Part shown: positions 10,014 to 24,910 of the stretch, one piece after another
Numbering within the stretch: the stretch's first letter is position 1
Layout of the letters: each line of letters begins with the position of its first letter
Assembly: GCF_014845095.1 (NCBI RefSeq)
Contig: NZ_NKUG01000077.1
Span: forward strand, 1-64,000
Direction of reading: 5' to 3'
Source: Methylobacterium bullatum
GTDB taxonomy: Bacteria; Pseudomonadota; Alphaproteobacteria; Rhizobiales; Beijerinckiaceae
Length of the DNA: 64,000 bases
Position numbers and translations under genes: made by a program
Notes under the pieces: generated by a model
The model's database searches: none
What the model was told of the DNA's origin: nothing
What the model saw: only the letters and a program-made list of their open reading frames with translations

Positions 10014-10311
10014 AGGCGCGCTCGCGAGTTTTACAGAAACAAATCCCTATAAATTGTTTCTTTTCGCAGAACGAACCCGATGCCGTCCGATCTATCATCG
10101 ACACCTTGGACCGAGATAGTTCTCCTGTCGGAACCATGGCGCGGGGTCGTCCAATCCTGTCGTCCTGGTTAACCGGATGGAATGGAATTTGCTCGCACTC
10201 CGCCAGATTGCGAGGCGGTAACTCTCTGTAGAGGCCTTTGGGTTAGTGCTGTCGGGCAGTGAAGGTGGGCGCTCACCGTGCGGCACCTTCCGCCATCGGG
10301 AGGAGGATGCT
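10014..10311. promoter_or_regulatory. Divergent intergenic region with an 8-bp dyad and a sigma-54-like element
   Basis: AT-rich compared with its surroundings. Positions 10035-10061 hold a perfect dyad, AGAAACAA, 11 bases, TTGTTTCT, a possible operator. Positions 10178-10193 on the plus strand match the sigma-54 -24/-12 spacing (TGG at 10178, TTGCT ending at 10193) with two mismatches in the -24 box. It lies about 120 bases before siaB. Both are sequence matches only. Confidence 0.35.
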
Positions 10312-10863
10312 GTGCTCGCGCGGGACTTCAAATCCTTCTTCGAGACATCGAAGCGTAACGGTATCATCCTGTCGTTCGGCGGCGACATCTCGGAGAACGT
10401 GCTGTTTTCCCTCGGCGAAGTCCTGAAGCTTCGGATGATCCAGGGTGAGACGGACGCGACCATCGCCAAGCGGGTGTTCTCGATCTTCGTCGAGCAGGCC
10501 CAGAACATCATTCGTTACTCGGCCGACAAGCTCCCCGGGGACAAGGCGTCCTGCGGCATGATCAGTGCGGGGATGATCGTGGTCGGCGTCGAGAACGCGC
10601 GCTTCTTCGTCGTGTGCGGCAACGAGGTTCCCAAGGCCGATGCCGCCGTTCTGCATGAGCGATTGGACCACATTGCCGGCATGTCCAGCGAAGAACTCAA
10701 GCGTTTCTACCGCGAGAAACTGCGCCAGCCCCCCGACGAGGGCAGCCTCGGAGGGAGCATCGGCCTGATCGAGATCGCTCGCCGGTCGAGTGCTCCCGTC
10801 GAGTTCGATTTTCACGATCTCGGCGACGAGCGCAGTCTGTTCTGCCTCAAAGCCTATATCTGA
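10312..10863 (+). CDS. siaB: SiaB-family protein kinase (DUF6272)
   Basis: By homology to the Pseudomonas SiaABCD system, a kinase that phosphorylates SiaC and so switches the diguanylate cyclase SiaD. The 183-residue product contains ILSFGGDISENVLFSLGEVL, VEQAQNIIRYSAD (an N-box-like segment) and a C-terminal LGGSIGLIEIARRS block typical of the family. The start is the GTG at 10312, because AGGAGG lies five bases upstream; a longer frame from 10246 lacks such a site. It is the first gene of siaB-siaC-siaD-siaA, 13 bases before siaC. Confidence 0.82.
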   Translation: MLARDFKSFFETSKRNGIILSFGGDISENVLFSLGEVLKLRMIQGETDATIAKRVFSIFVEQAQNIIRYSADKLPGDKASCGMISAGMIVVGVENARFFVVCGNEVPKADAAVLHERLDHIAGMSSEELKRFYREKLRQPPDEGSLGGSIGLIEIARRSSAPVEFDFHDLGDERSLFCLKAYI

Positions 10864-10876
10864 CGGCGCCCCGGCG

Positions 10877-11272
10877 ATGGACCGCATTCAAATTCCGGCG
10901 ACCGCCCGATCCCCCGAGGTGGATTTCGACTTCGGAGCCGGCCGTTTCAGGCTGAGCGGCGAATCGTATCCGGAGGATGCCGCGGCCTTCTTCGGCCCCC
11001 TGCTCCAGTCCCTGCGGTCCTACCTCGCCCTGTCGGGTCCGGAACCGATCGTGTTCGAGGTCGCCCTCGTCTATTTCAACAGTTCCAGCGCCAAGGGACT
11101 GATGAACCTGTTCATGCCCCTCGAGGCCGCAGCCGGCGAAGGCCGTGGCGTCACCATCCGCTGGCTCTACGCCGAGGGCGACGAGACCATCGCCGAGGCC
11201 GGGGAGGATTTCGCCTCCGACTTTTCCCATGCACGTTTCGATCTCGTCGAGACCTCGCAGGCGGGGAACTGA
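10877..11272 (+). CDS. siaC: SiaC-family regulatory phosphoprotein (DUF1987)
   Basis: Small switch protein that, unphosphorylated, activates SiaD in Pseudomonas. The 131-residue product shows the family landmarks GESYPEDA and YFNSSSAKGLMNLF. The second is the loop carrying the phosphorylated Thr in Pseudomonas SiaC. Here residues 69-71 are all Ser, so phosphorylation would have to be on Ser. I start at the ATG at 10877, 13 bases after siaB; a longer frame from 10790 overlaps siaB and is not family-like. Only five bases separate it from siaD. Confidence 0.85.
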   Translation: MDRIQIPATARSPEVDFDFGAGRFRLSGESYPEDAAAFFGPLLQSLRSYLALSGPEPIVFEVALVYFNSSSAKGLMNLFMPLEAAAGEGRGVTIRWLYAEGDETIAEAGEDFASDFSHARFDLVETSQAGN

Positions 11273-11277
11273 CACGG

Positions 11278-12135
11278 ATGAAGGCCAAGCCCGGGGTCGT
11301 TCCGCCAACCGACCATCCCCCCGTCGTCGGCGACGCGTTCAGTCTGTACGATACCGAGGAAGCGGTCCTGGGGAAGACCGATGGGATGCTGGCGGGGCTC
11401 GCGCAGGTCGCGGGCGGCGTCCAGCAACTCGCCGAAGCCTACCGGCGCAGTTATCGCGAGCAGCGCCGCCTCGTGAGGATGAGCGACCGGATGCAGCTCG
11501 ACCTGCAGAAGGCGAATCACCGCCTCGCCGAGCAGCAACGCGACCTACAGGCCCTCAACGAGGCGCTGTCCGGCGAGATCGAGCATCGGACCCGGCTCGA
11601 AGCGAAGCTGAGGCATCTGGCCGATACCGACGACCTCACCGGCGCGGTGAGCCGTCGCCGTTTCATGGAGATCAGCCAGCGTGAATGGCTGCGATACGAG
11701 CGCGACCGGATTCCCGCCTGCCTCCTCATGGCGGATCTCGACCGGTTCAAGCGCCTCAACGACGAGTTCGGCCACGCCGCCGGAGACGCTGCCCTCGCCA
11801 GCTTCGTCGAGACCTGCCGGAGGCGCCTGCGCAAGGTGGACGTGATCGGCCGCATGGGCGGCGAGGAATTCGCGATTCTGCTCACCGAGATCGGGGCCGA
11901 TGCCGGGCTCACGGTGGCCGAAGACATCTGCCGCCTCGTCGGGGAAACCGGCGTGGCGTGGCCCGGAGGACCGCTGGCGCTCTCCGTCAGCATCGGCATC
12001 GCCGCCATCGAGGGAACCGAGACCTTCGAGCAGACTCTGGGCCGGGCCGATGCTGCGCTCTATGCGGCCAAACATGCCGGACGGGGCTGTGTCCGCCCGT
12101 CCCGCGGCCCGTCCGCGGACGGACCGCCGCCATGA
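11278..12135 (+). CDS. siaD: SiaD-type diguanylate cyclase (GGDEF domain)
   Basis: Makes cyclic-di-GMP. Residues about 40-115 form a charged heptad-like coiled coil (LQKANHRLAEQQRDLQALNE). The GGDEF domain begins at ADTDDLTGAVSRRRFMEI and has the active-site motif GGEEF at residues 194-198. An RxxD inhibitory site (RKVD, residues 185-188) lies five residues before it, so product inhibition is likely. There is no transmembrane segment, as in Pseudomonas SiaD. Its stop overlaps the start of siaA by ATGA, indicating translational coupling. It is expected to need SiaC for activity. Confidence 0.9.
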   Translation: MKAKPGVVPPTDHPPVVGDAFSLYDTEEAVLGKTDGMLAGLAQVAGGVQQLAEAYRRSYREQRRLVRMSDRMQLDLQKANHRLAEQQRDLQALNEALSGEIEHRTRLEAKLRHLADTDDLTGAVSRRRFMEISQREWLRYERDRIPACLLMADLDRFKRLNDEFGHAAGDAALASFVETCRRRLRKVDVIGRMGGEEFAILLTEIGADAGLTVAEDICRLVGETGVAWPGGPLALSVSIGIAAIEGTETFEQTLGRADAALYAAKHAGRGCVRPSRGPSADGPPP

Positions 12136-13823
12136 CGTTCGATCCTGCGGCCGAGGGGGCAACGCCCGCCGTCGCCTCCCCCACCCGCAAGCGCTCCTTG
12201 AGGGGAGGCGGTCCCCTGCGCGGCGACGACTTCCTGGAACTGGCCGGTTTCACCGACGTATCGACATCCGCGCCCGGTACGATGCGGCCGGGCGCCCTGC
12301 GCGGTTCGGCCCGCGGGCGCGACCTCGACAGTCTGGCGCACACCCTGTTCCTGCGGATCTACCCGGTGATCGCCATCGTGGTGCTGGCGACGCAGGTCGG
12401 CATCGCCTGGGTGAACTACAACGACAGTCTCAGGCTCTATACCGAACGGGCGAACCTTCTCGTCGCCCTCACCGCCCAGGCCATCGCCCGACCCGATTGG
12501 AGCGAGCGGCCGGACGTCTACACGACCCAGGTCCAGGCCCTGACCCTCGATCCGGCGTTCCGCTTCGTCCGTGCCTGGAACGCGGAGGGCGGCCTGGTGA
12601 TGTCCATCGGCGAGATGCCGGGGGGACGCGGCATCGAGCTCATCCGGGCCTCCACCGCCATCACCCTGGCGGGCCAGGCGAAGCCCGTGGGAAGCCTGAC
12701 GCTGGGACTTTCCACCGAAGCCCTGCGCGCCAATGCGGAGAAGCAGGCGCTCCTGGCGGTCGGGGCAAGCCTGGTGCTGATGCTCGCCTTCGTGCTGACC
12801 CTGCATGCCAACGTGCGCAAGCACGTCCTCGCCCCCCTGAAGCGCCTGCTGCTCGCCATGCGCGAGGTCGAGCACAAGCGCTGGTCGACGGTGGCGTTCG
12901 ACGGCGCCATACGGGCCAGCAACGAGATCGACGTGATCTCCTCGGCCTTCAACCGCATGGTGGAGGGCCTGCGCGCCGGCGACGAGGCGAAGCAGCTCCT
13001 CTCCGACCTCGAACTCGCCCATGCCAAGCTCGCCGACGCCAACCACCAGGTCATGGAGAGCATCGGCTACGCCCGTCGCATCCAGACCTCCGTCCTGCCC
13101 GACCGGATGGCGCTGGCCGGTGCGGGCCTCGATGTCGCCGTGCTGTGGGAGCCGCTGCATCAGGTCGGCGGCGACTATTTCTGGCTGGAACGCCTCGGTG
13201 ACGTCAGCATCATCGTCGTGGCCGATTGCACCGGCCACGGCGTACCGGGCGCGTTCATCACGCTCATCGTCGCCACCGCCCTCGACCGCGTGCTGCACGA
13301 GCGCGGCCTTCGCTCGCCGGCCGAGATCCTGACGGTCCTCGACGAGATGGTCCGCGCCCAGCTGCGCCAGGACGGGCGCGGTTCGGATTCCGATGACGGG
13401 CTCGATTGCGGCCTGTGCATCTGGGACCCGGAGGCACGGCGCCTGACCTTCGCCGGCGCCGGCCTGTCGCTCACCACCGTCACGGATGCGGGGGTGACCC
13501 GGATCAGGGGGGCCAAGCGGGGACTCGGTTATCCGCGCCAGGGGAGCGAGAGCTTCAGCACCGGGAACGTCATCCTGGATGTGGCGCCGGGCGACACCTT
13601 CTACCTGATGACCGACGGCATCACCGACCAGATGGGTATTCACGGTACGCAGCGGCGATTGCTCGGGTATCGCGGTGTCGCGGATATCCTCCTGCGCACC
13701 CGCGGGGAGGAACTCGGCCGGCAGATCGGGACACTGGAAACCGAGCTCGCCGCCTATCGCGGCTCCGAGACACCCCGGGACGACATGACCCTGGTCGCGT
13801 TCCGCCCTAAACGACAGACGTGA
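12132..13823 (+). CDS. siaA: SiaA-type membrane-bound PP2C/SpoIIE phosphatase with HAMP domain
   Basis: Predicted sensor phosphatase that dephosphorylates SiaC. The 563-residue protein has a cytoplasmic leader, a first membrane helix (YPVIAIVVLATQVGIAWV, about residues 77-95), a periplasmic domain of about 140 residues, a second helix (LLAVGASLVLMLAFVLTL), a HAMP region and a C-terminal SpoIIE/PP2C domain with GGDYFWLERLGD, VADCTGHGVPGAFITL and FYLMTDGITDQMG. The metal-binding Asp residues are present. In Pseudomonas siaA is the first gene of the operon; here it is last and coupled to siaD. Confidence 0.87.
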   Translation: MTFDPAAEGATPAVASPTRKRSLRGGGPLRGDDFLELAGFTDVSTSAPGTMRPGALRGSARGRDLDSLAHTLFLRIYPVIAIVVLATQVGIAWVNYNDSLRLYTERANLLVALTAQAIARPDWSERPDVYTTQVQALTLDPAFRFVRAWNAEGGLVMSIGEMPGGRGIELIRASTAITLAGQAKPVGSLTLGLSTEALRANAEKQALLAVGASLVLMLAFVLTLHANVRKHVLAPLKRLLLAMREVEHKRWSTVAFDGAIRASNEIDVISSAFNRMVEGLRAGDEAKQLLSDLELAHAKLADANHQVMESIGYARRIQTSVLPDRMALAGAGLDVAVLWEPLHQVGGDYFWLERLGDVSIIVVADCTGHGVPGAFITLIVATALDRVLHERGLRSPAEILTVLDEMVRAQLRQDGRGSDSDDGLDCGLCIWDPEARRLTFAGAGLSLTTVTDAGVTRIRGAKRGLGYPRQGSESFSTGNVILDVAPGDTFYLMTDGITDQMGIHGTQRRLLGYRGVADILLRTRGEELGRQIGTLETELAAYRGSETPRDDMTLVAFRPKRQT

Positions 13824-14325: not shown

Positions 14326-15264
14326 ATGATCCGGTTCGAGGGCGTCTACCGTCGCTTTGCCGGCGCGGATCGACCGGCCGTCGATGGGATCGACCTCGAC
14401 ATCGCGGAAGGCACGACCTGCGTCCTCATCGGCCCTTCCGGCTGTGGCAAATCCACCACCCTGCGCATGGTCAACCGGCTCGTGGAACCGGATGCCGGGC
14501 GCATTCTCCTCGACGGACGCGACGTGGCGGGGGTCGATCCGGTGCGGCTGCGCCGCGGCATCGGCTATGTCCTGCAGGGCATCGGCCTGTTCCCCCACCG
14601 GACCGTCGCCGAGAACGTCGCCACCGTGCCAAAGCTGTCGGGCTGGTCCCGCGCCCGGATCGCGGATCGCGTGGACGAGATGCTCGCCCTCGTCGGCCTC
14701 GATCCGCGGGACTACCGCGACCGGAGGCCGGACGAACTCTCCGGCGGTCAGCGCCAGCGTGTCGGCGTCGCCCGCGCTCTGGCGGCGGACCCAGCCGTCC
14801 TCCTCATGGACGAACCCTTCGGAGCCGTGGATCCGGTAGCGCGTAGCCGGCTACAAAGCGAGATCGGCGAGATACTTCGCCGGCTCAATAAGACCGTCAT
14901 CATCGTCACCCACGATATCGACGAGGCGATGCGGATGGGGGATCACGTCGTGCTGATGCGCGAGGGCCGGATCGTCCAGGCCGACACGCCAGACCGCCTC
15001 CTGGTCGCTCCCGCCGACGCCTTCGTGGAGAGCTTCGTCGGCGAGGACCGTGCTCTGCGGCGTCTCGCGCTGACGCAAGCGGGTGTCGTCGCGGTTCCCG
15101 GTGAGGCCGCGGATGCGCCGTCCGTCACGGCCGAGACATCGCTGAAGGACGCCCTGGCGCTGCTTCTCTCCACTGGCGCCGATCACCTAGCGGTGACGGG
15201 GAACGGTGCCCCCGCCATTCTGACTCTCACCGCGATCCGGGAAGCCGCATCGCGGCGGACCTGA
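14326..15264 (+). CDS. OpuCA/ProV-like ABC transporter ATP-binding protein, partner genes absent
   Basis: Resembles the ATPase of glycine betaine/choline/carnitine (quaternary amine) importers. The 312-residue protein has Walker A GPSGCGKSTTLRMVNRL, signature [15 protein letters not shown], Walker B VLLMDEPFGAVDP and the switch IIVTHDIDEAMRMGD, followed by a C-terminal region of about 70 residues resembling a single degenerate CBS-like segment. ATPases of this class normally sit with permease and binding-protein genes, but none is adjacent. The downstream gene is convergent and unrelated. Whether it serves a distant permease cannot be told from here. Confidence 0.85.
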   Translation: MIRFEGVYRRFAGADRPAVDGIDLDIAEGTTCVLIGPSGCGKSTTLRMVNRLVEPDAGRILLDGRDVAGVDPVRLRRGIGYVLQGIGLFPHRTVAENVATVPKLSGWSRARIADRVDEMLALVGLDPRDYRDRRPDELSGGQRQRVGVARALAADPAVLLMDEPFGAVDPVARSRLQSEIGEILRRLNKTVIIVTHDIDEAMRMGDHVVLMREGRIVQADTPDRLLVAPADAFVESFVGEDRALRRLALTQAGVVAVPGEAADAPSVTAETSLKDALALLLSTGADHLAVTGNGAPAILTLTAIREAASRRT

Positions 15265-15309: not shown

Positions 15310-18300
15310 TCACTCCGCCGCGTCGGAGACCCGGAACGTCTCGATTCCCTGCCGCTCCGGGTTGATGGCCGCCAGCGCGCGCTTGGCCGTCTCCAGCGGA
15401 TGCTCGGCTTCGATCCGCACCGAGGTCAGGTCCGGGCTCTTATAGACGGTGACGATGGTGTCCATCACCTCGGTGAGCGTGGTGCGCTTGTCTTCCGGGG
15501 CGGCGATGAGGAGTTGCAGCCCCCAGGCCTGATAGAGGTCCACCAGGGCCTGCGAGTTGCGCACGTCGAGTTTGGAGAAGGCCTCGTCGAGGAGGCAGAG
15601 GCCCAGACCGGGATTCTCGTCGCCGGGCCGGTCGCCGGGGTAATAGGCCGAGGCGAGCGAGGCGGCGATGGCCACGTAGAACGGCGCCTGCGCCTCGCCG
15701 CCCGAGCCGCGCAGGGCCCGGTTCGACATGGTGGTGCGGTTGCCCGCCTTGTCGCGCATGCCGATCTCGTAGACGAAATAGTTGCGGTAATCGGCGAGCC
15801 GCGCCGCGCTCTCGTCCCCGGCGATCAGGGCGGTGATCTCCTCGATGGCGGCGGCGAGCGGCCCCGAAGGCGCTTCCTCGCCTTCCCCCGGCAGAATCGC
15901 CTGCGCCGCGTCGGCCGAGCGAGCCACCTCTGTGGCGAGGGCATGCACGGCGGCGTAGCGGCGGTCGACGGTCGCCTCGAACGCGTAGGTCTGGCCGGTG
16001 AAGGTCTGGGTGGAGAGGCGTTCGTTCAGGGCGTCGAGGCGGGTGCGGACCCGCTCGAACTTGTCGGCGAGGCGCGTCAGCAGGTCCTCAGTCATGAGGC
16101 GGCGCATCTCGCCCTCTGCCCGCACCGCCTGGTCGCGATAGCGCCGCAACTCGTGGCCCGCCACCTCGTCATGGGCGCGGGCGACCCAAGAGAAACCGAA
16201 GGAGGCCGGGGCGTCGCCGTTGCCGAGCGGGTTCTCGATCCGCCATTGCACGCAATATTCGGCGAGATCGCGCTCGGCGGCACGGCCTTGCGTGCGCGCC
16301 GTCTCCATCGCCTCGCGGGCGGCGCCGCGCGCCGCATTGGCCAAAGCCGCCAGTTCCTTGGATTCGAGACCTGCGGCGTCGGCCCGGGCCTTCGCCACCG
16401 CCAGCGGATCGAACCCGGCCGGCCGGACGAGTCGGATGCGGACGGAATCACCGGCGATCCAGCGCGCATGGGCGCTGCGCCTCGCCTGGAGCGCGCCCCG
16501 TATCGCCTCCCGCGCGGTGGCGACCTTCGCCTTCAGCCCCGCTTCCTCGCCGAGCAGCGCGTCGCGCTTGGGCTCCAGAACCTGAACCAGTTCCGTGAGA
16601 TAGGCCGAGCGCTCCTTGGCGAGTTCCTTGATCTCGGCCTCCAGCGCGCCGGTATCCGCCTTCTCCACGGCCTCACGCTCGGTGGTGAGGCTGCGCCGGC
16701 GCCCTTCCATGGCGTCGGCCTCCTGGCGCAGGGAGACGATGTCGAGATTCGCTTCCGCGAGGCGGACCCGCAGCATGGCGGCGATGCGGGCGGCCTCGCG
16801 CAGCACGCCCGCCTCACCGCGCAGGCGCCGCGCCTCGGCCACCGCGCGCTCCAGGTTCTGCCGTCCCTCCGCCGTGGGGCCGCGGCTGCCCCGCGTCATC
16901 ATCAATTGGACCGGCCGCACCACGGAATAGGCCATGCCCGAGGTGGAGCGGCCGCTCGGCGCCACGGCGCGGCTCATATGGGCGAGGGCCGCGTCGTTCG
17001 GGGCGAGATCGTAGCCCCCGAGACGCGCGGCGAGGAAGGCCTGGGCGTGAGGATCGCGGGTCTCGATCAGCGAGATCGGCCCCTCGTCGTCGCGCCCGCC
17101 CCGGCGCCGCGCGGTGTCGGTGGTCTTGACCAGCAGGCAGCGGTAGAACTGGCTCTTGCGGGCTTCGAGATGGGCGAAGGCTTCGTTGAGCCTGTCCGGC
17201 TCCACCACCAGGGCCTCGCGGGCGCCGCCGAGCAGGCCCTCCAGGGCCGGCCCCCATTTCGGATCGGTGATCTCGGCGAGCTCGCAGATCGGCGTGGCCT
17301 CGATCCCCAGCCGGGCCAGCTCGTCGCGAAAGCCCGCCGTGTCGGAGGAGAGGCGGGCGCCGCCCGTCCGCCCGGTGCCGATCTCGGCCGAGAGGGCCTG
17401 CGCCTCCTTCTCCTGGGCCCGGGCGCGCAGGGCCATATCCTCGGCGGCGGTGTCGAGGGGGGTGGCGATGTCGGGCAGGGCCGCGAGCATCTCGATCAAC
17501 CCGCCGAGGGGGCCGTCGAGGCGCAGGGATTCCTCCGGGGGCGCCTCACGGCGCAGGCCGGAGCGCGAGCACGCGGCCACGATCCGGGCGGCGTCGGGAT
17601 CGATCCGCTGAATCTCGGAGAACAGGGTGTTGAGCTTGCCCGCCTCCTGCACCATCCCAACGAGGTCGGCGACGCGGGCGGAGAGGTCGCGCTTGTCGCG
17701 CGCCAGCATGGCGAGGCCGGCATTGGAGGCGGCGAGCCGCCCCTCCCCCTGGCTCCCGGCGAGCATCGCCTTCTTGCCGGCGATTTCCCCGTCGATCTCG
17801 CGCACGAACCCCTGGCTGGTGGCCACACTCTCGCGGGCGATGCGCAGGCGCTCGGCTACCTCGCCGAGCCTGGAGCGGGCGGTCGCGTAATCGAGGATGC
17901 GCCGGCGCAGATCGGCGCCAGCGGCGCGCAGATCGTCGAGGGTGGCCGAGAGGCTGGCCTCGGCCCAGGTCTCGTAGCGCTTCAGGATGCGCCCGAGATG
18001 CGTGAGCCGGCGCTCCAACTCCTCGATCGTCTCCAGCAGGCGGCGCCAGTTCTCCACCGACTGGCGGATGCGGGCGACGTCCAGGGGCTCCGGTTCGAGC
18101 ACGAAGGAGCGCACGAAGGCGGAGGAATCGAAGATCGGCTTGAACGCCACGGCGTTGGAGAAGGTGCGCAGGAAATGCCGTGGCTCCGGACTCGACGCCC
18201 CCTCGCGCATCAGCGCCAGCAATTCGGCGGTGAAGCGCTCGCCCGACGAGCGGAATTCCTCGAACCGGTCGGCCTGGATGCGCAGGTTCTTGGCGATCTC

Positions 18301-18849
18301 CGGCCAGGGCGCGACGAAGCTGCCCTCCGCGGTCTCGCGGACGTAATCGGCGATCTCGAAGCGATGGCCGACCGCGATGAAGCGCGACAGCGTGGTCTCG
18401 CGGCTGTCCTCGGCACGGGCCGCCAAAGCGAGGCCCACCGAGACGACGCGGCCGGTGGTCTCGTTCTCGAAGACCAGAACGATCAGGGTCTCGCAGGCCT
18501 CGCGGGTCGGGCGTCCGCCCTCGGCCGGGTCGCTGATCCAGCCGAGGCAGTAATCGCGGACCGTGCGGGCGCTGCGCCCCGAGGCGGAGGCGTTGAGGGC
18601 GAGGCGGCTGGCATTGTTGCCGGCCAGCACCGTTCCAACGGCATCGAAGATCGTCGATTTGCCGGCGCCCGTCGGCCCCACCAGGGCAGCCGCCCCCCGG
18701 ATGCGGATCTGCTCGCGCCGGATCAGGTACCAGTTGGAGAGGACGATGTCGGTGAGGCGGTACACCGGTCGGGCGGCTCCCTGCGGGGCGTGTCGGTCGC
18801 CCGGCATGGACGCCGTCGGCTCGCGATGCAAGTCGGGTCGCAGCGTCAC
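15310..18849 (-). CDS. jetC: JetC/MksB-like SMC ATPase of a Wadjet-type complex
   Basis: Large condensin-like ATPase of about 1179 residues. An N-terminal head has Walker A GPTGAGKSTIFDAVG (residues about 58-72). Long charged helical stretches follow, predicted as coiled coil with a hinge-like middle. The C-terminal head shows NRALRGSGGEAQAPFYV (signature) and LCLLDEAFSKLDVRNSQAL (Walker B and D-loop). Wadjet JetC and MksB load on DNA and extrude loops. It is last in the order jetA, small gene, jetB, jetC. The start is uncertain: a perfect AGGAGGTGA contains the GTG at 18849, and a CTG at 18843 has better spacing. Confidence 0.85.
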   Translation of the reverse strand: MTLRPDLHREPTASMPGDRHAPQGAARPVYRLTDIVLSNWYLIRREQIRIRGAAALVGPTGAGKSTIFDAVGTVLAGNNASRLALNASASGRSARTVRDYCLGWISDPAEGGRPTREACETLIVLVFENETTGRVVSVGLALAARAEDSRETTLSRFIAVGHRFEIADYVRETAEGSFVAPWPEIAKNLRIQADRFEEFRSSGERFTAELLALMREGASSPEPRHFLRTFSNAVAFKPIFDSSAFVRSFVLEPEPLDVARIRQSVENWRRLLETIEELERRLTHLGRILKRYETWAEASLSATLDDLRAAGADLRRRILDYATARSRLGEVAERLRIARESVATSQGFVREIDGEIAGKKAMLAGSQGEGRLAASNAGLAMLARDKRDLSARVADLVGMVQEAGKLNTLFSEIQRIDPDAARIVAACSRSGLRREAPPEESLRLDGPLGGLIEMLAALPDIATPLDTAAEDMALRARAQEKEAQALSAEIGTGRTGGARLSSDTAGFRDELARLGIEATPICELAEITDPKWGPALEGLLGGAREALVVEPDRLNEAFAHLEARKSQFYRCLLVKTTDTARRRGGRDDEGPISLIETRDPHAQAFLAARLGGYDLAPNDAALAHMSRAVAPSGRSTSGMAYSVVRPVQLMMTRGSRGPTAEGRQNLERAVAEARRLRGEAGVLREAARIAAMLRVRLAEANLDIVSLRQEADAMEGRRRSLTTEREAVEKADTGALEAEIKELAKERSAYLTELVQVLEPKRDALLGEEAGLKAKVATAREAIRGALQARRSAHARWIAGDSVRIRLVRPAGFDPLAVAKARADAAGLESKELAALANAARGAAREAMETARTQGRAAERDLAEYCVQWRIENPLGNGDAPASFGFSWVARAHDEVAGHELRRYRDQAVRAEGEMRRLMTEDLLTRLADKFERVRTRLDALNERLSTQTFTGQTYAFEATVDRRYAAVHALATEVARSADAAQAILPGEGEEAPSGPLAAAIEEITALIAGDESAARLADYRNYFVYEIGMRDKAGNRTTMSNRALRGSGGEAQAPFYVAIAASLASAYYPGDRPGDENPGLGLCLLDEAFSKLDVRNSQALVDLYQAWGLQLLIAAPEDKRTTLTEVMDTIVTVYKSPDLTSVRIEAEHPLETAKRALAAINPERQGIETFRVSDAAE

Positions 18850-18976
18850 CTCCTATAGGGGCGGGACGGTCCGTCCCCGCGCACCGGAATGTTTTCATGT
18901 GAAATCTTTTATTAAGCAGCCCCGATCCCGACCGAAGGCCGACATCGGCGCGTTCGCCGGCCCCGGTGACCCGCTT

Positions 18977-19645
18977 TCAGCCGTCGTCGTCGAGGCGCGC
19001 CGCGGCCCAGGCGCGGACCTGTTCCATCCAGGCATCGGGCGAGAGCACGGCGATGCCCGGTAGAAGCATCAGCGGCGTGATCTTCTCGGCCTTGTCGCGC
19101 TCCCCCAGGCGCAGGGCGCCCTTGCGGGCGAAGAGGCGGAGGATTTCGGTGAGGCGCGCCTCCTCCGGCGCCTCGCTCCGGGCGGCGGTGCGGATCGATT
19201 CGGCGATGTCGTCGGTGGTGCATTCGACCACGCCGTCGGTGGTGACGCGGTGCGCGCGCAGCCCCTCCTCGTAGGCGAGACGCAGGGCGAGAAGGACGAG
19301 GGTCTCGTCCTTGCGCAGGCGTTCGGCCTGGCCGTCGTGGCGCACACCGTCCGGGGGCACGCGCAGGAACACCATCTGGTCGCGGGGCGAAACCTCGACC
19401 CCGTATCCGAGGCAGGCGAAGTAGCTCTTGAAGAAGGGCGCGTAGTGCCGGGCAAGCTCGTAGGAGCGCCCGATGCCGGGGGTGTCGGAATAGATGCATT
19501 GGCTCTTGAGCAGCACCTGGAGCGCCCGCGTCAGATCCTCCCCGGAGGGCGCGCGCGTCCCCGGAGGCGGAGGCTCGTCGCCGTCGACGATGGCGCGGAA
19601 GGCCTCGATCATCCCGACAATCCATGAAGCGTTGAGGCGGAACAC
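18977..19645 (-). CDS. jetB: JetB/MksE-like winged-helix subunit (DUF4194-like)
   Basis: Predicted kite-type subunit bridging JetA and JetC. The 222-residue product has an early GEDLTRALQVLLKSQCIYSD segment and then ELARHYAPFFKSYFACLGY and VFLRVPPDGVRHD, followed by DETLVLLALRLAYEEGLRA. These correspond to the conserved parts of MukE/MksE-like proteins. A GTG at 19645 is the longest plausible start; the ATG at 19612 is an alternative 11 residues shorter. It is 127 bases before jetC and 58 bases after the 88-residue gene. The subunit assignment rests partly on position in the operon. Confidence 0.78.
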   Translation of the reverse strand: MFRLNASWIVGMIEAFRAIVDGDEPPPPGTRAPSGEDLTRALQVLLKSQCIYSDTPGIGRSYELARHYAPFFKSYFACLGYGVEVSPRDQMVFLRVPPDGVRHDGQAERLRKDETLVLLALRLAYEEGLRAHRVTTDGVVECTTDDIAESIRTAARSEAPEEARLTEILRLFARKGALRLGERDKAEKITPLMLLPGIAVLSPDAWMEQVRAWAAARLDDDG

Positions 19646-19703
19646 CCGTCCCGCCGTGGCGCCTCGTTACCCGGATCGCGGTCCTTTCACAAAGGCCCGG
19701 CGT

Positions 19704-19970
19704 TCATGCCGCCTGCTGGGTCGCCTTGAACAGCGAGAGGCATTGGGTGTCGCGGTGCATGCTCAGGATCGAGGCGCGGTCGATGGACGGATTCTCGGCG
19801 AGCACGCGCTGGACCTCCGCCACGACCCGGTCGTAGCGGGAGGGGTCGAAGTTCCGTTCCAGCGGACTGACGGCGATATAGGTCTCGACCACGAGCACGC
19901 GCTCGGATCTCTCCTTGCCCACCTCGACCGCGATCCAGGCGGACTTGATCAAGCATTTCCCGGATGTCAT
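19704..19970 (-). CDS. 88-residue protein of unknown function inside the jet operon
   Basis: I do not recognise this family. The product is soluble with no signal peptide or membrane helix. It reads as a mixed beta strand region (AWIAVEVG, ERVLVVETYIAV) and then a helical part (RYDRVVAEVQRVLAENP), ending in DTQCLSLFKATQQ. The ATG at 19970 has GGGAG about nine bases upstream. It lies between jetA (151-base gap) and jetB (58-base gap) on the same strand, a position not usual in Wadjet loci. It might be an accessory or regulatory subunit, or an unrelated insertion. Confidence 0.55.
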   Translation of the reverse strand: MTSGKCLIKSAWIAVEVGKERSERVLVVETYIAVSPLERNFDPSRYDRVVAEVQRVLAENPSIDRASILSMHRDTQCLSLFKATQQAA

Positions 19971-20121
19971 CGGCGTATCTCCCGGTATTCCCGCATCTTC
20001 GGCGGGCCTTCGGCAAGCATGATCCCCCTTCCAACGTCTGCCAAGTCCGGAAACATCAATGTGATCAGGCGGCGGTCCAAGATCGTCACCGATTGTGACC
20101 CGATGCGGAGTTCGTCCCCGC

Positions 20122-21534
20122 TCAGGCGCCGCGTGGGCGAACCGATGCCGGGCGGAACGCCGGGTTTCGGCGCTCCACCAGGAAGTCCGGGCAGTCGAGC
20201 CAGCCGTTGGAGACGCGGCCCGCGACCCGCGAGAGGCGGTAGCGCGTGGTCAGGATGCCGTCGAACAGCACGTCGATCTCGCGCAGGCGCTGGAACACCA
20301 CGAACTCGTCCACATCCGCCACCACGATCTCGGAACCCCGGACGGCGGGGCTCGCCCCGAGCTTGCGCTCGACGAAGGCGATGACGCGCTCCGGCGTCAC
20401 CATCACCCGCTGGCGGAAGGCGTCCTTGGCCAGGATGAAGGCCTCGATGGCAGGGTCGAGATGGATCTCCGGCAGCGGCTCGGACAGGATCGCCGCGCGC
20501 CGCATGCGGGGGGTGTAGAGATGCGGCTCGCCGATGGGCGGACGCAGGAGCGAGACCTCGGCGAAGGGACCGGTCTCCGACCATTCGGCGGCGCCCACCG
20601 CCCGCAACGCCGCGGCGGTACGCTCGATCCGGTCGGAATCGCGATGGTCGGTGTAGCGCAGGGCCGCCGCGATCCGGCGCTCAAGGCGTGCCACGATGTC
20701 GGCCACGGCGTCGAGATGCCGGTCGAGCCCCTCGAAGATCGAGAGGATTTCGGCGAGATCCGCCCGTACCGCCCGCTCGGCCAGGGACAGGTCCTGTGCC
20801 CTCCCTTCGCGCAGCCCCGCTTCGGCGAGAGCCCGCAGGGTGAGGTCGTCGCGCAGGGCGCGGCCCGCCTCGCGGACGATGCCGGAGCGGAAGCGGAACG
20901 GGTTCAGGCGCGTGTGCAGGGTGCGGTAGTCGCTGACGAGATGGCGCGCGACGAACTCCTCGAAATAGAGGCGGAACGCGACGCCCTGGTCTTCCTCGCG
21001 CAGGATCCGCTCCTCGATCTTGCGCATCGAGCCGGCGAGGCTGCGCAGATGTCCGAGGAAGGCGCGCGAGGCCTTGGCCGCATTGACCAGGGCCTCCGAA
21101 CGTTCGGCCGGGTTGGCCACCGCGCTCTCCAGGCTACCCAGTACCTCCAGTACCGCGCCGCCATAGGAGCGGGTCTCGCCTCGGTCGAGACGGGCGAGTT
21201 CCTCGATGACGAGGCGGGCATCCGGATCGAAATCGACCACCGGCACGTAGCGCTCGCGCCGTTCCACCAGCCAGCCGGCGTCGAGAAGCCGCCGGTAGAC
21301 CGCCGAGCGTCGCTCCACCGGATCGACCGGCGTGGCCTCGTCGTCGGCGATCTCGCCCTGGGACCAGTCGGCGGAGAAATCACCGATGGAGGCGAGCAGC
21401 TCGCTCTTGCGCAGGGGTTCGGTGGTCTCGGCGAACACCCTGGCATGCAGATGCAGCAGCAGCGCCGCGTTGAAGGCCCGGCTCGGCGAGGCGAGCGGCT
21501 TGAACAGATCGTCGGGGAGGCGGGTGAACAGCAT
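20122..21534 (-). CDS. jetA: JetA family protein (DUF5716-like kleisin)
   Basis: Predicted MukF/MksF-like kleisin of a Wadjet-type complex. The 470-residue protein begins MLFTRLPDDLFKPLASPSRA and LLHLHARVFAE, the typical JetA N-terminus with a winged-helix-like region (RRSAVYRRLLDAGWLVERRE). A long helical middle follows (FLGHLRSLAGSMRKIEERIL, RTLHTRLNPFRFRSGIVREA). The C-terminal region includes EVSLLRPPIGEPHLYTPRM. It starts the operon, 137 bases downstream of a small secreted-protein gene on the same strand. Together with jetB and jetC it forms a near-complete set; JetD, the TOPRIM-type nuclease, is not in the window. Confidence 0.83.
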   Translation of the reverse strand: MLFTRLPDDLFKPLASPSRAFNAALLLHLHARVFAETTEPLRKSELLASIGDFSADWSQGEIADDEATPVDPVERRSAVYRRLLDAGWLVERRERYVPVVDFDPDARLVIEELARLDRGETRSYGGAVLEVLGSLESAVANPAERSEALVNAAKASRAFLGHLRSLAGSMRKIEERILREEDQGVAFRLYFEEFVARHLVSDYRTLHTRLNPFRFRSGIVREAGRALRDDLTLRALAEAGLREGRAQDLSLAERAVRADLAEILSIFEGLDRHLDAVADIVARLERRIAAALRYTDHRDSDRIERTAAALRAVGAAEWSETGPFAEVSLLRPPIGEPHLYTPRMRRAAILSEPLPEIHLDPAIEAFILAKDAFRQRVMVTPERVIAFVERKLGASPAVRGSEIVVADVDEFVVFQRLREIDVLFDGILTTRYRLSRVAGRVSNGWLDCPDFLVERRNPAFRPASVRPRGA

Positions 21535-21671: not shown

Positions 21672-22007
21672 CTACAGCCCGCGGCAGCGCGTCCGGATGA
21701 TGCCGGAGAAATCCTTCTCCGAGGTCTGCACCTCGGCGAGCTTGGCGGCGCGCTCGGCCCCCGACAGGCAGCGACCGTAGACGCTGGCGACCCGGCGCAT
21801 GGTCTCCACGTGGCGGCGCCAGACCCGGCAGCGGTTGGCATCGTCGCCATCCGCCTGCTCGAGCTGGTCGATGGCCTGACGCTGCATCGAGTTGGCCACG
21901 AGCACGTCGCGGGCGCAGGTCACGTCGGCCCGCGCCGGCGTGAGCGACAGGACGAGCCCCGCCATCGCGGCCGCCGCCCACTTCGCCTTCACGTCCATCG
22001 GGATCAT
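21672..22007 (-). CDS. Small secreted protein coupled to ptsN
   Basis: The 111-residue product has a signal peptide (AAAAMAGLVLSLTPARA) followed by a helical, Cys-containing mature part (DVTCARDVLVANSM, CRVWRRHVETMRR, RCLSGAERAAKL, IIRTRCRGL). Four cysteines suggest two disulfides. Its ATG at 22007 overlaps the ptsN stop as ATGA, so it is translated with ptsN; an ATG three codons later is the alternative. I know no function. Confidence 0.65.
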   Translation of the reverse strand: MIPMDVKAKWAAAAMAGLVLSLTPARADVTCARDVLVANSMQRQAIDQLEQADGDDANRCRVWRRHVETMRRVASVYGRCLSGAERAAKLAEVQTSEKDFSGIIRTRCRGL

Positions 22008-22471
22008 GCCGCCTCGGATTTCGTAGGCTGCGTCAGGAGCGCGTAGAGTGCGCTGGCGTCCCTCGCGGCCCGGATCCGGTCGAGAACGCCCGGTTCGCGC
22101 AGGAGCCGCGCCACCTGGGCCAGCGCCTTGAGATGCTCCGCGCCCGCGCCCTCCGGGGCGAGGAGGAGAAAGGCGATGTCGATCGGCTGACCGTCGAGGG
22201 ATTCGAAATCCACCGGCTTCTCCAGCCGTGCCACGAGGCCGAACAGCCGGTCGAGGCCCGGAAGCTTGCCATGGGGAATGGCGACGCCGTCGCCGATGCC
22301 CGTGGAGCCGAGGCGCTCGCGCTGCAGGAGAGTCTCGAACACCTCACGCTCGTCCAGAGCGGGAAGCTGGCGCACCGCATGGGTGCTCAATTCCTGGAGG
22401 ATCTGCTTCTTCGCGCGAGCGCGCAGAGAGGTCACCACGGAATCCGGACTCAGGAATTCCAGAATCGGCAT
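22004..22471 (-). CDS. ptsN: Nitrogen-regulatory PTS protein EIIA-Ntr
   Basis: Phosphocarrier of the nitrogen PTS that links carbon/nitrogen status to potassium transport and other targets in Proteobacteria. The 155-residue product shows REVFETLLQRERLGSTGIGD and GVAIPHGKLPGLD, with the phosphorylated His in IPHG. I start at the ATG at 22471 (MPILEFLSPD), the family-like N-terminus; an ATG at 22489 adds six residues. It lies downstream of rpoN and hpf, the classical order. A kup-type potassium transporter is also in the window. Confidence 0.93.
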   Translation of the reverse strand: MPILEFLSPDSVVTSLRARAKKQILQELSTHAVRQLPALDEREVFETLLQRERLGSTGIGDGVAIPHGKLPGLDRLFGLVARLEKPVDFESLDGQPIDIAFLLLAPEGAGAEHLKALAQVARLLREPGVLDRIRAARDASALYALLTQPTKSEAA

Positions 22472-22594
22472 AAAGGACCATCGCCCCATCGGCGGCGACC
22501 CACCGGCCCCCGCTCGTCTACATTAGCGCTGCGGATGCGTGGTCCCCACGCATCCCGAGGCGGCCGATGGTCGGCACGCGGCCGGCAGAGCGCG

Positions 22595-23206
22595 TTAAGC
22601 TGCCGCCTCCGGCGGATCCACCCAACCGATCGCTCCGTCACTGCGGCGGTATACGACGTTGATGCGGCCGGTACCAGCGTGAACGAACACGATGACCGGT
22701 GCCCCCGTGAGATCGAGGGCGGTGACCGCCTCGCTCACCGAGTGGCGCTTGAGCGCCCTGGTGCTCTCGGCGACCACGGGCGGATGCGCCTCCTCGTCCT
22801 CGGCGAGATCGTCGTCGATCACATCCTCTTCCGCGTCGCTCGGCGCGGCGAAGACGGCGTAGGCCGCCTGGACGGTGGCGCCCTCATGCAGGGCGGCGCC
22901 ATGATCCTTGAGCCGGTGCTTGTAGCGCCTCAGGCGCTTCTCGAGCTTGTCCGCCGTCTGCTCGAAGCTCGAATGCGCGTCGTGCGAAGCGGCGGACGCT
23001 TCGAGCGTCAGGCCCGAGACGAGGTGAAGCACACAATCGGTACGGTAGGCCGTCCCATCCCGTCGAAGCGTCACATGGCCGGAACAGGTGCCGTTCATGT
23101 GGCTGTCGAGATATTTCGACAAGGTGGCGGCCATTCGCTCTTCGACACGCCCGCGAAGGGCTTCGCCGAGGTCCAGGCCGTGGCCTGTGACGCGCAATGA
23201 CCCCAT
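22595..23206 (-). CDS. hpf: Ribosome hibernation promoting factor, long form
   Basis: Binds the 30S decoding centre and dimerises ribosomes in stationary phase. The 203-residue protein has the N-terminal RaiA/Hpf domain (SLRVTGHGLDLGEALRGRVE, RLRRYKHRLKDHG), an acidic linker (AEEDVIDDDLAEDEEA) and the C-terminal dimerisation domain (STRALKRHSVSEAVTALDL, GRINVVYRRSDGAIGWVDP). The ATG at 23206 has GGAGG immediately upstream, so the frame to 23239 is not used. It sits between rpoN and ptsN. Confidence 0.95.
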   Translation of the reverse strand: MGSLRVTGHGLDLGEALRGRVEERMAATLSKYLDSHMNGTCSGHVTLRRDGTAYRTDCVLHLVSGLTLEASAASHDAHSSFEQTADKLEKRLRRYKHRLKDHGAALHEGATVQAAYAVFAAPSDAEEDVIDDDLAEDEEAHPPVVAESTRALKRHSVSEAVTALDLTGAPVIVFVHAGTGRINVVYRRSDGAIGWVDPPEAAA

Positions 23207-23362
23207 GTATCCTCCGGTTTTGTTGCGTTCGGGAGGCAAGTAAAGGAGCCCCGGGAGGAGAAGTCAACGGAATGGCGAACCGGCATTGCACGGGAGGTGA
23301 CAGGCGGGAGAGCCTGAAGCTTGCCCCGGCGGGCAGACGTCATCCGCAGAACGCGGCAGCCC

Positions 23363-24910
23363 TCAGCGGGCGTAGGCGAAATGCTCGCGGCGGCGCTCGA
23401 TGGACGAGGGGATGCGCAGGGATTCCCGATATTTCGCCACGGTGCGGCGGGCGATGTCGATGCCCTCGTCGCGGAGCTTCTGCACCAGGGCGTCGTCCGA
23501 GAGCACGTCGCCGGTCGCCTCGCCGTCCACGAGCTGCTTGATGCGGTGGCGCACCGCCTCGGAGGAATGCGAAGCCGTGCCCGCCGCCCCCGGAATGGCG
23601 GCGGTGAAGAAGTATTTCATCTCCAGGGTGCCCCGGCTGGTGCCGATGGATTTGTTGGAGGTGACCCGCGACACGGTGGATTCGTGCATGCCGATGGCCT
23701 CGGCGACCGTCTTGAGGTTGAGGGGGCGCAGATGCGCCACGCCGTTCACGAAGAAGGCGTCCTGCTGGCGGACGATCTCCGAGGCGACCTTGAGGATGGT
23801 GCGCGCCCGCTGCTCCAGGCTGCGGGTGAGCCAGTTGGCGGTCTGCAGGCATTCGGACAGGAACGCCTTGTCGCCCTCGGCCGCCGCCCCGCGCGAGACG
23901 CGGGCATAGTAGCTCTGGTTCACCAGAACGCGCGGCAGCGCCTCGGCATTGAGCTCCACCAGCCAGGAGCCGTCGGAGGCCGCCCGGACGAACACGTCGG
24001 GGATCAGCACCTCCACGGCGCGCGAGCCGAAGGCCCGCCCGGGCTTCGGGTCGAGGCGGCGCAGTTCGGCCAGCATGTCGACGAGATCCTCGTCGTCGAC
24101 GCCGCAGAGCCGGCGCAGGCTCGGGAAGTCGCGCTTGGCCACGAGGTCGAGGCGGGAGACCAGGGCCTGCATCGCCGGATCGAACCGGTCACGCTCGCGC
24201 AGCTGCAGGCTCAGACATTCGGCGAGATCGCGGGCGGCGATACCCGGCGGGTCGAAGGTCTGGATCAGCTTGAGCACCCGCGCCACGGAATCGAGGCTGG
24301 CGCCGAGGCGCTCGGCCACCTCGTCGATGGACTCGCGCATGTAGCCGGCATCGTCCACCGCATCGATGAGGAAGCCGGCGATCAGCCTGTCGCCGGCATC
24401 GCGGGTGGCGAGGTCGAGTTGCGCGCTGAGATGCTCGCGCAGGGAGACTTCCGAGGTCAGGGTCGCCTCGAAATCCGGCGCCTCGCCGTCGAAGCTGCCG
24501 CCGGTATTGCCGTAGGGCGCCGGAGTCAGGGTGAGCATGTCGCCCGAGGCAGCCTCGCGGGCATGGCTCGGATTCTCATCGGAGAAGACGTTGTCGAGAC
24601 GGGTGTCGAGGACGCTTTCCATCTCGGCGCTGCTGGCCGTGAGTTCGGTCGACATCCAGTTGTCGGGCTCGGCCGAGTCGAACTCGCCATCCCCGTCGCC
24701 CGCGGCCTCCGGGGCCACCTCGCCGTTCGCGCGTTCACCGTCCGGCTCGCCCTCGACGCGCTCCAGGAGCGGATTGCGCTCCAGTTCGGCATCCACATAG
24801 GTGGCGAGATCGATCTGGGAGAGCTGAAGGAGCTTGATCGCCTGGAGAAGCTGTGGCGTCATCACCAGGGCTTGGCCCTGACGCATTTCCAGTCGCTGCA
24901 GCAAGCTCAT
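23363..24910 (-). CDS. rpoN: RNA polymerase sigma-54 factor
   Basis: Directs RNA polymerase to -24/-12 promoters under enhancer-binding activators. The 515-residue protein begins with region I (MRQGQALVMTPQLLQAIKLL), has an acidic region II (EVAPEAAGDGDGEFDSAEPD), the core-binding domain (PPGIAARDLAECLSLQLRE) and a C-terminal DNA-binding region with the RpoN box ARRTVAKYRE at about residue 488. It is flanked by lptB upstream and hpf/ptsN downstream, the conserved order in Proteobacteria. A candidate sigma-54 site lies before siaB. Confidence 0.97.
   Translation of the reverse strand: MSLLQRLEMRQGQALVMTPQLLQAIKLLQLSQIDLATYVDAELERNPLLERVEGEPDGERANGEVAPEAAGDGDGEFDSAEPDNWMSTELTASSAEMESVLDTRLDNVFSDENPSHAREAASGDMLTLTPAPYGNTGGSFDGEAPDFEATLTSEVSLREHLSAQLDLATRDAGDRLIAGFLIDAVDDAGYMRESIDEVAERLGASLDSVARVLKLIQTFDPPGIAARDLAECLSLQLRERDRFDPAMQALVSRLDLVAKRDFPSLRRLCGVDDEDLVDMLAELRRLDPKPGRAFGSRAVEVLIPDVFVRAASDGSWLVELNAEALPRVLVNQSYYARVSRGAAAEGDKAFLSECLQTANWLTRSLEQRARTILKVASEIVRQQDAFFVNGVAHLRPLNLKTVAEAIGMHESTVSRVTSNKSIGTSRGTLEMKYFFTAAIPGAAGTASHSSEAVRHRIKQLVDGEATGDVLSDDALVQKLRDEGIDIARRTVAKYRESLRIPSSIERRREHFAYAR

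What the first reader, a model, noticed from the sequence alone, without database searches (positions are those of the whole stretch)
15310..21534. JetABC (Wadjet/MksBEF-like) operon with no JetD nuclease and one extra gene
JetA, JetB and JetC homologues occur in one operon on the minus strand. Wadjet systems known for plasmid restriction carry JetD, a TOPRIM-type nuclease (family knowledge). None of the neighbouring reading frames within 6 kb of either end resembles JetD. An 88-codon gene lies between jetA and jetB. Either JetD is encoded elsewhere, the small protein replaces a function, or this is a chromosome-organising condensin rather than a defence system. Its place directly downstream of the conserved rpoN-hpf-ptsN block argues against a mobile island.
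Basis: partly seen in the sequence, partly recalled or inferred. Interest (0 to 1): 0.75.

Follow-up and report, generated by a model that had tools for sequence, protein, structure and literature searches.

The report
Nuclease-less Wadjet complex replacing SMC condensin
In most Methylobacterium species a three-part DNA motor borrowed from an anti-plasmid defence system, stripped of its DNA-cutting part, appears to have taken over the job of the standard chromosome-folding machine, whose gene has been lost.

Summary
In detail: jetA, jetB and jetC (Wadjet type I profiles) lie at 15310-21534, and no JetD-family gene is found nearby, in the own genome or in any of 89 genus genomes. The 88-codon gene is not part of the system: it occurs in 87 of 89 genus genomes, including all 12 without jet genes, and mostly far from them. 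Unexpectedly, the jet genes look like a housekeeping condensin. All three occur in the same 77 of 89 genus genomes, persist in nine genomes where they are no longer linked (one with a frameshifted jetA), and are under purifying selection. The standard condensin gene smc was found in 7 of 8 tested genus genomes without jet and in 40 of 40 genomes of other families, but in 0 of 51 with jet. In M. bullatum (99.6% identical to the window) the conserved smc site, mutY-dciA-dsbA-[smc]-atpI-atpB, lacks smc. Best reading: a Wadjet that lost its nuclease has replaced SMC. Trees indicate at least four JetD losses. Untested: scpA/scpB, and function. Limited scoring is the main caveat. Precedent: P. aeruginosa MksBEF.

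The parts
20122..21534 (-). jetA (kleisin-like subunit), 470 aa
   Evidence: PF18982 225.7 bits; PADLOC JetA1 766 bits
18977..19612 (-). jetB (KITE-like, DUF4194); start chosen at ATG 19612 because homologues begin there; longest ORF starts at GTG 19645
   Evidence: DUF4194 69.4 bits; PADLOC JetB1 395 bits; N-termini of relatives
15310..18849 (-). jetC (SMC-like ATPase), 1179 codons as ORF; conserved part begins near 18765
   Evidence: PADLOC JetC1 1800 bits, SbcC_Walker_B 71.9 bits; alignment A1
18652..18678 (-). JetC Walker A (GPTGAGKST)
   Evidence: alignment A1
15529..15801 (-). JetC signature / Walker B region
   Evidence: PF13558 residues 1017-1107 of the 1179-aa ORF
19704..19970 (-). 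orf88, genus-wide small protein; bystander between jetA and jetB, not a jet component
   Evidence: 87 of 89 genus genomes, mostly unlinked to jet
21672..24910 (-). context: 111-aa ORF, ptsN (22004-22489), hpf (22595-23239), rpoN (23363-24910)
14326..15264 (+). context: ABC transporter ATPase gene downstream of jetC on the other strand
   Evidence: ABC_tran 119.8 bits

Best explanation
jetA-jetB-jetC encode a type I Wadjet-like SMC motor that has lost the JetD nuclease and now works as a housekeeping condensin: the JetC ATPase dimers, closed by the JetA kleisin and JetB, would load on the chromosome and extrude loops so that sister chromosomes separate. In the Methylobacterium lineages that carry it, it has replaced Smc. 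Shown here: the subunits and intact motifs, absence of JetD-family genes, co-occurrence of the three genes across the genus, their retention when unlinked, purifying selection, non-detection of smc in jet-carrying genomes, and an smc-free syntenic site in the same species. Inferred: loop extrusion on the chromosome, a role in segregation, and the order of events (JetD lost before or at acquisition, then smc lost).
For: All three jet genes in the same 77 of 89 genus genomes and absent from the same 12. JetD_C in 0 of 89 genus genomes, 3 of 149 relatives overall. SMC_prok_B: 40 of 40 other-family genomes, 7 of 8 jet-negative and 0 of 51 jet-positive genus genomes. M. bullatum mbul2 (L232): methylase-mutY-dciA-dsbA-207 bp-atpI-atpB-atpE without smc, while M. 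aquaticum (L233) and the jet-negative genomes G036, G020, G015 and G024 have smc at that point in the same order; G012, G041 and G054 agree as far as their contigs reach. Tblastn of a Methylobacterium Smc against 72,556 plasmid records matches 54, of which one is Methylobacterium, M. aquaticum. The window is 99.58% identical to the M. bullatum jet locus over 19.5 kb. Jet genes unlinked but retained in nine genomes (G073, G071, G028, G033, G025, G061, G081, G077, G078). JetC uninterrupted in 70 of 77. dN/dS 0.046-0.10 against the two nearest relatives, rpoN 0.056-0.057. JetA and JetC distances agree (Mantel r 0.94, n=26; 0.97 for 8 genomes with unlinked genes). Jet-negative genomes are one clade on the orf88 tree (100/99, 12 of 45 rows).
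Against: One search scored only the 6 best first-look candidates per genome, and it missed (or there is none in) one jet-negative genome, G039; of the seven jet-negative genus genomes with a match, four exceed the curated cut-off and three (G024, G041, G054) have it in pieces below it. A very divergent Smc could escape. The empty site is seen in one record only, a 2.83-Mb piece of that genome; a 400-kb stretch of G008 guessed to hold it did not. scpA/scpB were not searched. The jet/smc exchange is one split in the genus, so the many genomes count as about one event. G077 jetA is split by a frameshift, G007 jetC has an internal TGA and G083 has frameshifts in jetB and jetC; in G083 a flanking gene is broken too, so assembly noise is likely there, but the other two are unexplained. 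The nearest jet sets without JetD outside the genus sit on plasmids, where a chromosomal role is not obvious. No experiment.
Confidence: 0.75

Rival explanations
1. JetABC is a second, accessory condensin beside a normal or divergent Smc-ScpAB that the search missed, as MksBEF is in Pseudomonas aeruginosa.
For: P. aeruginosa has both SMC and MksBEF (PMC7485682, start of abstract in listing); one search scored few candidates per genome and has one jet-negative miss (G039).
Against: 0 of 51 jet-positive against 7 of 8 jet-negative genus genomes and 40 of 40 other-family genomes; the smc site of M. bullatum is empty; no Smc hit in its 2.83-Mb record.
Confidence: 0.12
2. JetABC is still an anti-plasmid system that recruits a different nuclease encoded elsewhere.
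For: Subunits are of Wadjet type I; nearest relatives outside the genus that also lack JetD sit on large plasmids.
Against: No JetD_C gene in the genus; besides the jet genes no gene cluster recurs in more than 10 of 23 fetched jet-positive loci; present in most species of a genus and retained when scattered, which I would not expect of a defence system; smc not found.
Confidence: 0.08
3. A decaying remnant of a Wadjet system with no function.
For: Operon opened by inserts in nine fetched loci; frameshifts or stops in G077, G083, G007.
Against: JetC uninterrupted in 70 of 77 genomes; dN/dS 0.046-0.10 against near relatives, like rpoN; all three genes kept together in presence and absence.
Confidence: 0.02
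4. The 88-codon protein substitutes for JetD or modifies the complex.
For: Lies between jetA and jetB in the window and in near relatives.
Against: In 87 of 89 genus genomes incl. all 12 without jet; elsewhere in most; no match in two jet-positive genomes, G047 and G059; no nuclease family above a cut-off, though weak sub-threshold matches to a type II restriction model (E 0.031) and NucS_C (E 0.14) were listed.
Confidence: 0.02

Closest known systems
Wadjet type I (JetABCD / MksBEFG / EptABCD)
   Same: JetA, JetB, JetC all match type I profiles; order A-B-C; JetC closest by sequence to solved JetC chains
   Different: JetD nuclease not found anywhere in the genus sample; genus-wide, sometimes unlinked genes; smc not found
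MksBEF of Pseudomonas aeruginosa
   Same: [quoted passage not shown] PMC7083940 passages)
   Different: P. aeruginosa keeps SMC as well; sequence relation between the two was not tested here
MukBEF of enterobacteria
   Same: A condensin unlike Smc that apparently replaced Smc-ScpAB in a lineage; a defence past has been suggested (PMC10586767)
   Different: JetC matched no MukB chain in the PDB search at E 1e-5 (85); Methylobacterium subunits remain recognisably Jet
Smc-ScpAB
   Same: Proposed role
   Different: JetC scores 32.9 bits on SMC_prok_B against a cut-off of 567: not an Smc orthologue
JetABC without JetD in gammaproteobacteria (Marinobacterium, Neptuniibacter, Nitrincola and others) and in Acholeplasmatales
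   Same: Same three-gene set, no JetD in the locus, recurring chromosomal neighbours
   Different: Separate branches of the tree, so separate losses; JetD absence known only for the locus; whether they keep smc was not tested

Membership tests
Wadjet type I defence system | JetA, JetB and JetC of type I | tested here: met
Wadjet type I defence system | JetD nuclease in the operon or genome | tested here: not met
   PF09983 and PF11795 0 matches in own genome; PF09983 in 0 of 89 genus genomes
Wadjet type I defence system | restricts small circular plasmids | not testable with these tools
   needs transformation assays
MksBEF-like condensin (JetABC without nuclease) | three subunits, no MksG/JetD | tested here: met
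MksBEF-like condensin (JetABC without nuclease) | acts in chromosome organisation | not testable with these tools
   genomic pattern only
MksBEF-like condensin (JetABC without nuclease) | sequence kinship with P. aeruginosa MksBEF | not tested
   no such sequence was at hand
Smc-ScpAB | Smc equivalog score | tested here: not met
   JetC 32.9 bits, cut-off 567 (5); no Smc match in 51 jet-positive genomes
Smc-ScpAB | ScpA and ScpB | not tested
MukBEF | MukB similarity | tested here: inconclusive
   PDB search at E 1e-5 returned only JetC chains; no dedicated MukB comparison was run

The most novel reading that the evidence does not exclude
Wadjet is a recurrent source of chromosomal condensins. 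Loss of the JetD nuclease turned it at least four times into a chromosome motor, and in Methylobacterium it has gone all the way: Smc is gone and JetABC is the only condensin. That would be a still recognisable case of the route from defence to housekeeping that has been proposed for MukBEF.
Probability: 0.55. Interest if true: 0.9.

Novelty: new variant of a known kind. Interest (0 to 1): 0.8.

Why it matters
How SMC complexes can be both chromosome organisers and weapons against plasmids is an open paradox, and a defence ancestry of MukBEF and MksBEF has only been proposed (PMC10586767). Methylobacterium offers one genus in which one clade has Smc and the rest have JetABC without nuclease. 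The exchange can therefore be dated, the old site inspected, and the two condensins swapped in tractable, harmless methylotrophs. It would also warn annotators: tools that count JetA/B/C as Wadjet would label a housekeeping complex as immunity.

Tried and rejected
JetD elsewhere: rejected. Small protein as a JetD stand-in: rejected; its AlphaFold model was too poor to use (mean pLDDT 52) and no fold search was run. Loss of the published JetD contact motif (IFDR at the JetB N-terminus, PMC10586767 section 7) as a marker: inconclusive, because JetB proteins with a JetD neighbour do not show it clearly either. Neighbours as evidence against a mobile island: the rpoN neighbourhood is seen only in the window's near relatives among the loci fetched, so it proves little either way. 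JetC in the family: 22 of 298 genomes, 21 of them this genus and one, G350, not; class: 6 of 385, four outside the genus. Empty smc site in a second jet-positive genome: guessed from gene order in M. bullatum, 400 kb of G008 read, neither smc nor its neighbours found (the database was checked in 97), so this neither supports nor opposes. The JetC tree used 80 rows; I left out nine loci by name (L098, L107, L109, L111, L112, L129, L156, L175, L195), 17 further named Methylobacterium loci, and any row below 700 bits. The JetA tree used 37 chosen rows. The orf88 tree used the 45 of 87 genomes for which I held the sequence. JetD absence for loci outside the genus is at locus level, except the two plasmids L113 and L114, searched whole. 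Literature: (Methylobacteri + MksB) found no paper; some searches showed listings (in part capped: 20 of 250, 15 of 57, 10 of 300, 10 of 44 papers in 61, 71, 72, 84) with nothing in title or abstract start on Smc loss or JetABC in Methylobacterium. The three papers that hold both 'Wadjet' and 'Methylobacterium' mention the genus for other reasons (passages, 98-100). I saw passages of six papers and one section of one, none whole. The founding MksBEF paper (PMC3179180) is not held, so it could mention this and I would not know.
Full report
WHAT IS THERE. The window lies in a Methylobacterium genome (contig C305 of 329). Its jet region is 99.58% identical over 19,455 aligned bases to the record of Methylobacterium bullatum isolate mbul2, so I take it to be that species. 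jetA (20122-21534), jetB (18977-19612) and jetC (15310-18849) lie on the minus strand and match type I Wadjet profiles far better than anything else. JetC keeps Walker A, signature and Walker B, and its only sequence matches among solved structures at E 1e-5 are JetC chains.

NO JetD. PF09983 (JetD_C) and PF11795 (DUF3322) give no match in the own genome. In 149 relatives PF09983 is found in 3, all of other families (G089, G123, G137), and in 0 of 89 genus genomes. G123 and G137 carry JetABC with JetD beside it and so serve as positive controls.

THE SMALL GENE. orf88 is real but independent: 87 of 89 genus genomes have it, including all 12 that lack jet genes, and 0 of the 60 genomes outside the genus. 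Counted by hand, of the 75 jet-positive genomes with orf88 it lies between jetA and jetB in 19 (in one, G060, a contig ends there), within 5 kb of jetA in six more, and elsewhere, over 20 kb away or on another contig, in 50. Two jet-positive genomes (G047, G059) have no match to it.

A GENUS-WIDE GENE SET. jetA, jetB and jetC each occur in 77 of 89 genus genomes, the same 77, and are missing together from the same 12. JetC is one uninterrupted match in 70 of the 77. The other seven are five in which it is in pieces or partial (G011, G029, G043, G060, G074), one with an internal TGA (G007) and one with a frameshift (G083). For jetA, G077 is split by a frameshift, and 16 further matches contain one TGA; in the four of these read (G033, G023, G082, G078) the frame is open over the whole domain, so the TGA is probably the natural stop. 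In nine fetched loci the operon has been opened by inserted stretches of about 1.9 to 6.2 kb (L066-L069, L071-L073, L075, L082). In nine genomes the parts are no longer linked: G073 (one contig; jetA at 2.46 Mb, jetB-jetC at 4.96 Mb), G071 and G028 (jetA apart from jetBC), and G033, G025, G061, G081, G077, G078 (jetC apart from jetAB, contig lengths in 23, 26, 57). In G077 and G078 contigs end nearby, so a distance of roughly 15 kb is not excluded there. On the small orf88 tree G073, G071 and G028 group together, as do G033, G025 and G061 (80), so these are fewer than nine events. Yet the genes persist, and JetA and JetC pairwise distances agree (Mantel r 0.94 for 26 genomes; 0.97 for eight with unlinked genes; 0 of 2000 permutations reach either). 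dN/dS is 0.046-0.10 against the two nearest relatives, rpoN 0.056-0.057 (78); at larger distances the ratios rise to 0.37 as dS saturates, and mean little.

SMC IS MISSING WHERE JET IS PRESENT. The SMC_prok_B profile (TIGR02168) was searched in 99 genomes. It was found in 40 of 40 genomes of other families and in 7 of the 8 jet-negative genus genomes in that set, but in 0 of 51 jet-positive genus genomes, the own genome included. Of the seven, four exceed the curated cut-off and three (G024, G041, G054) have the gene in pieces below it. The miss among jet-negative genomes is G039. The search scored only six first-look candidates per genome, which could hide a divergent gene; but the same setting found Smc in 47 of 48 jet-negative or other-family genomes (G123, which has JetABCD, is among these).

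THE EMPTY SITE. In jet-negative Methylobacterium smc stands between a dsbA-like gene and atpI: mutY, dciA, dsbA, smc, atpI, atpB are found in this order in G036, G020, G015, G024 and M. aquaticum (L221, L222, L224, L225, L233), and G012, G041 and G054 agree as far as their contigs reach. Genomes of other families also have smc close to dsbA and mutY (L226, L227, L228), two of them beside the ATP synthase genes. In M. bullatum mbul2, which carries jetABC, the same genes follow in the same order (L232: methylase, mutY, dciA, dsbA, 207 bp, atpI, atpB, atpE, then the two b subunits), with no smc between them (identities by Pfam). Tblastn of a Methylobacterium Smc against the plasmid records matches 54, of which one is Methylobacterium, M. 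aquaticum. The M. bullatum record is a 2.83-Mb piece labelled 'plasmid 1', so it is not the whole genome. An attempt to find the site in G008 failed.

ONE EXCHANGE WITHIN THE GENUS. On the orf88 tree the 12 jet-negative genomes form one side of a branch (support 100/99; 45 rows, 84 columns). So the exchange of smc for jet is one event, or few, and the many genomes are not independent evidence. JetC relatives are otherwise rare: outside the genus only G350 among 298 family genomes and four genomes of 385 in the class sample. This suggests acquisition by transfer rather than descent from the family ancestor; that is inference.

WHERE IT CAME FROM. The closest sets outside the genus are on the 1.32-Mb plasmid pRlX5 of Rhizobium leguminosarum TP16 (JetA 46%, JetB 48%, JetC 39% identity) and in an Aurantimonadaceae metagenome bin. 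Neither locus shows JetD, and pRlX5 has none in its whole length. Near neighbours with JetD include Telmatospirillum, Plastoroseomonas and Sphingomonas. On the JetC tree (80 rows, 51 without JetD in the locus; quick method) the presence of JetD changes five times; on the JetA tree (37 rows) also five, of which well-supported branches force four. Groups without JetD are Methylobacterium with the Rhizobium and Aurantimonadaceae rows, Salipiger (two rows), 26 gammaproteobacterial rows (Marinobacterium, Neptuniibacter, Nitrincola and others), and eight Acholeplasmatales or Erysipelotrichaceae rows; a single Bacilli locus (L171) is doubtful. In the JetA tree Telmatospirillum, with JetD, falls between Methylobacterium and the Rhizobium row (94/91), so those two may be separate losses. 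In 6 of 9 loci of the Acholeplasmatales set a small gene follows jetC; the two that I scanned are SepF. Many long branches are present, so the deep order is unsure.

HOW IT LIKELY WORKS. By analogy with Wadjet, MukBEF and Smc (established knowledge, not tested here), JetC dimers would hydrolyse ATP to extrude DNA loops, with JetA closing the ring and JetB bound to it. Without JetD, reaching the end of a small circle would not lead to cutting, and on the chromosome the motor would fold and separate sister DNA. The review PMC10586767 (passages and section 7) proposes that P. [quoted passage not shown] What is new here, as far as my searches reach, is that such a complex appears to have displaced Smc itself in Methylobacterium.

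LIMITS. No ScpA/ScpB search, no exhaustive Smc search, one empty site, about one genus-level event, and no experiment. These keep my confidence at 0.75.

Noticed in passing
window 19704-19970 and L035-L064, L089-L097: orf88: an 88-codon family found in 87 of 89 genus genomes and 0 of 60 outside the genus, with a strongly conserved core (33 invariant columns of 88 in 15 sequences), no Pfam family above cut-off, and changing neighbourhoods.
   Followed up: partly
L066-L069, L071-L073, L075, L082: Unrelated stretches of about 1.9-6.2 kb inserted between jetA, jetB and jetC, some with genes on the opposite strand.
   Followed up: partly
L132-L188 (gammaproteobacterial loci): JetABC without JetD in the locus in Marinobacterium, Neptuniibacter, Nitrincola, Amphritea, Neptunomonas and others, with recurring neighbours; whether smc is kept was not tested.
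   Followed up: partly
L168 10231-10551, L170 10234-10557: In two scanned Acholeplasmatales bins the gene right after jetC is SepF (Pfam), a cell division protein, with no JetD in between.
   Followed up: partly
L233 (M. aquaticum pMaq22A_1p): A 1.57-Mb replicon recorded as a plasmid with a relaxase carries mutY, smc and F0 ATP synthase genes, so it behaves like a second chromosome.
   Followed up: no
L118, L232 (NZ_LR743510.1): The 2.83-Mb linear record named plasmid 1 of M. bullatum holds ATP synthase genes, mutY and jetABC; probably a piece of the chromosome.
   Followed up: no
L225 (G024) 9430-12875: smc of the jet-negative, one-contig genome G024 reads as two open frames; either a frameshift or an assembly error.
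   Followed up: no
genome G039: Jet-negative genome in which the Smc search also found nothing; it branches first among the jet-negative rows as drawn on the orf88 tree (support 89/65). Missed gene or true absence is open.
   Followed up: no
L099 9445-10215 (G123): A second, interrupted JetD-like stretch (no JetA, JetB or JetC match in that fetched locus) in the genome that has a full JetABCD elsewhere.
   Followed up: no
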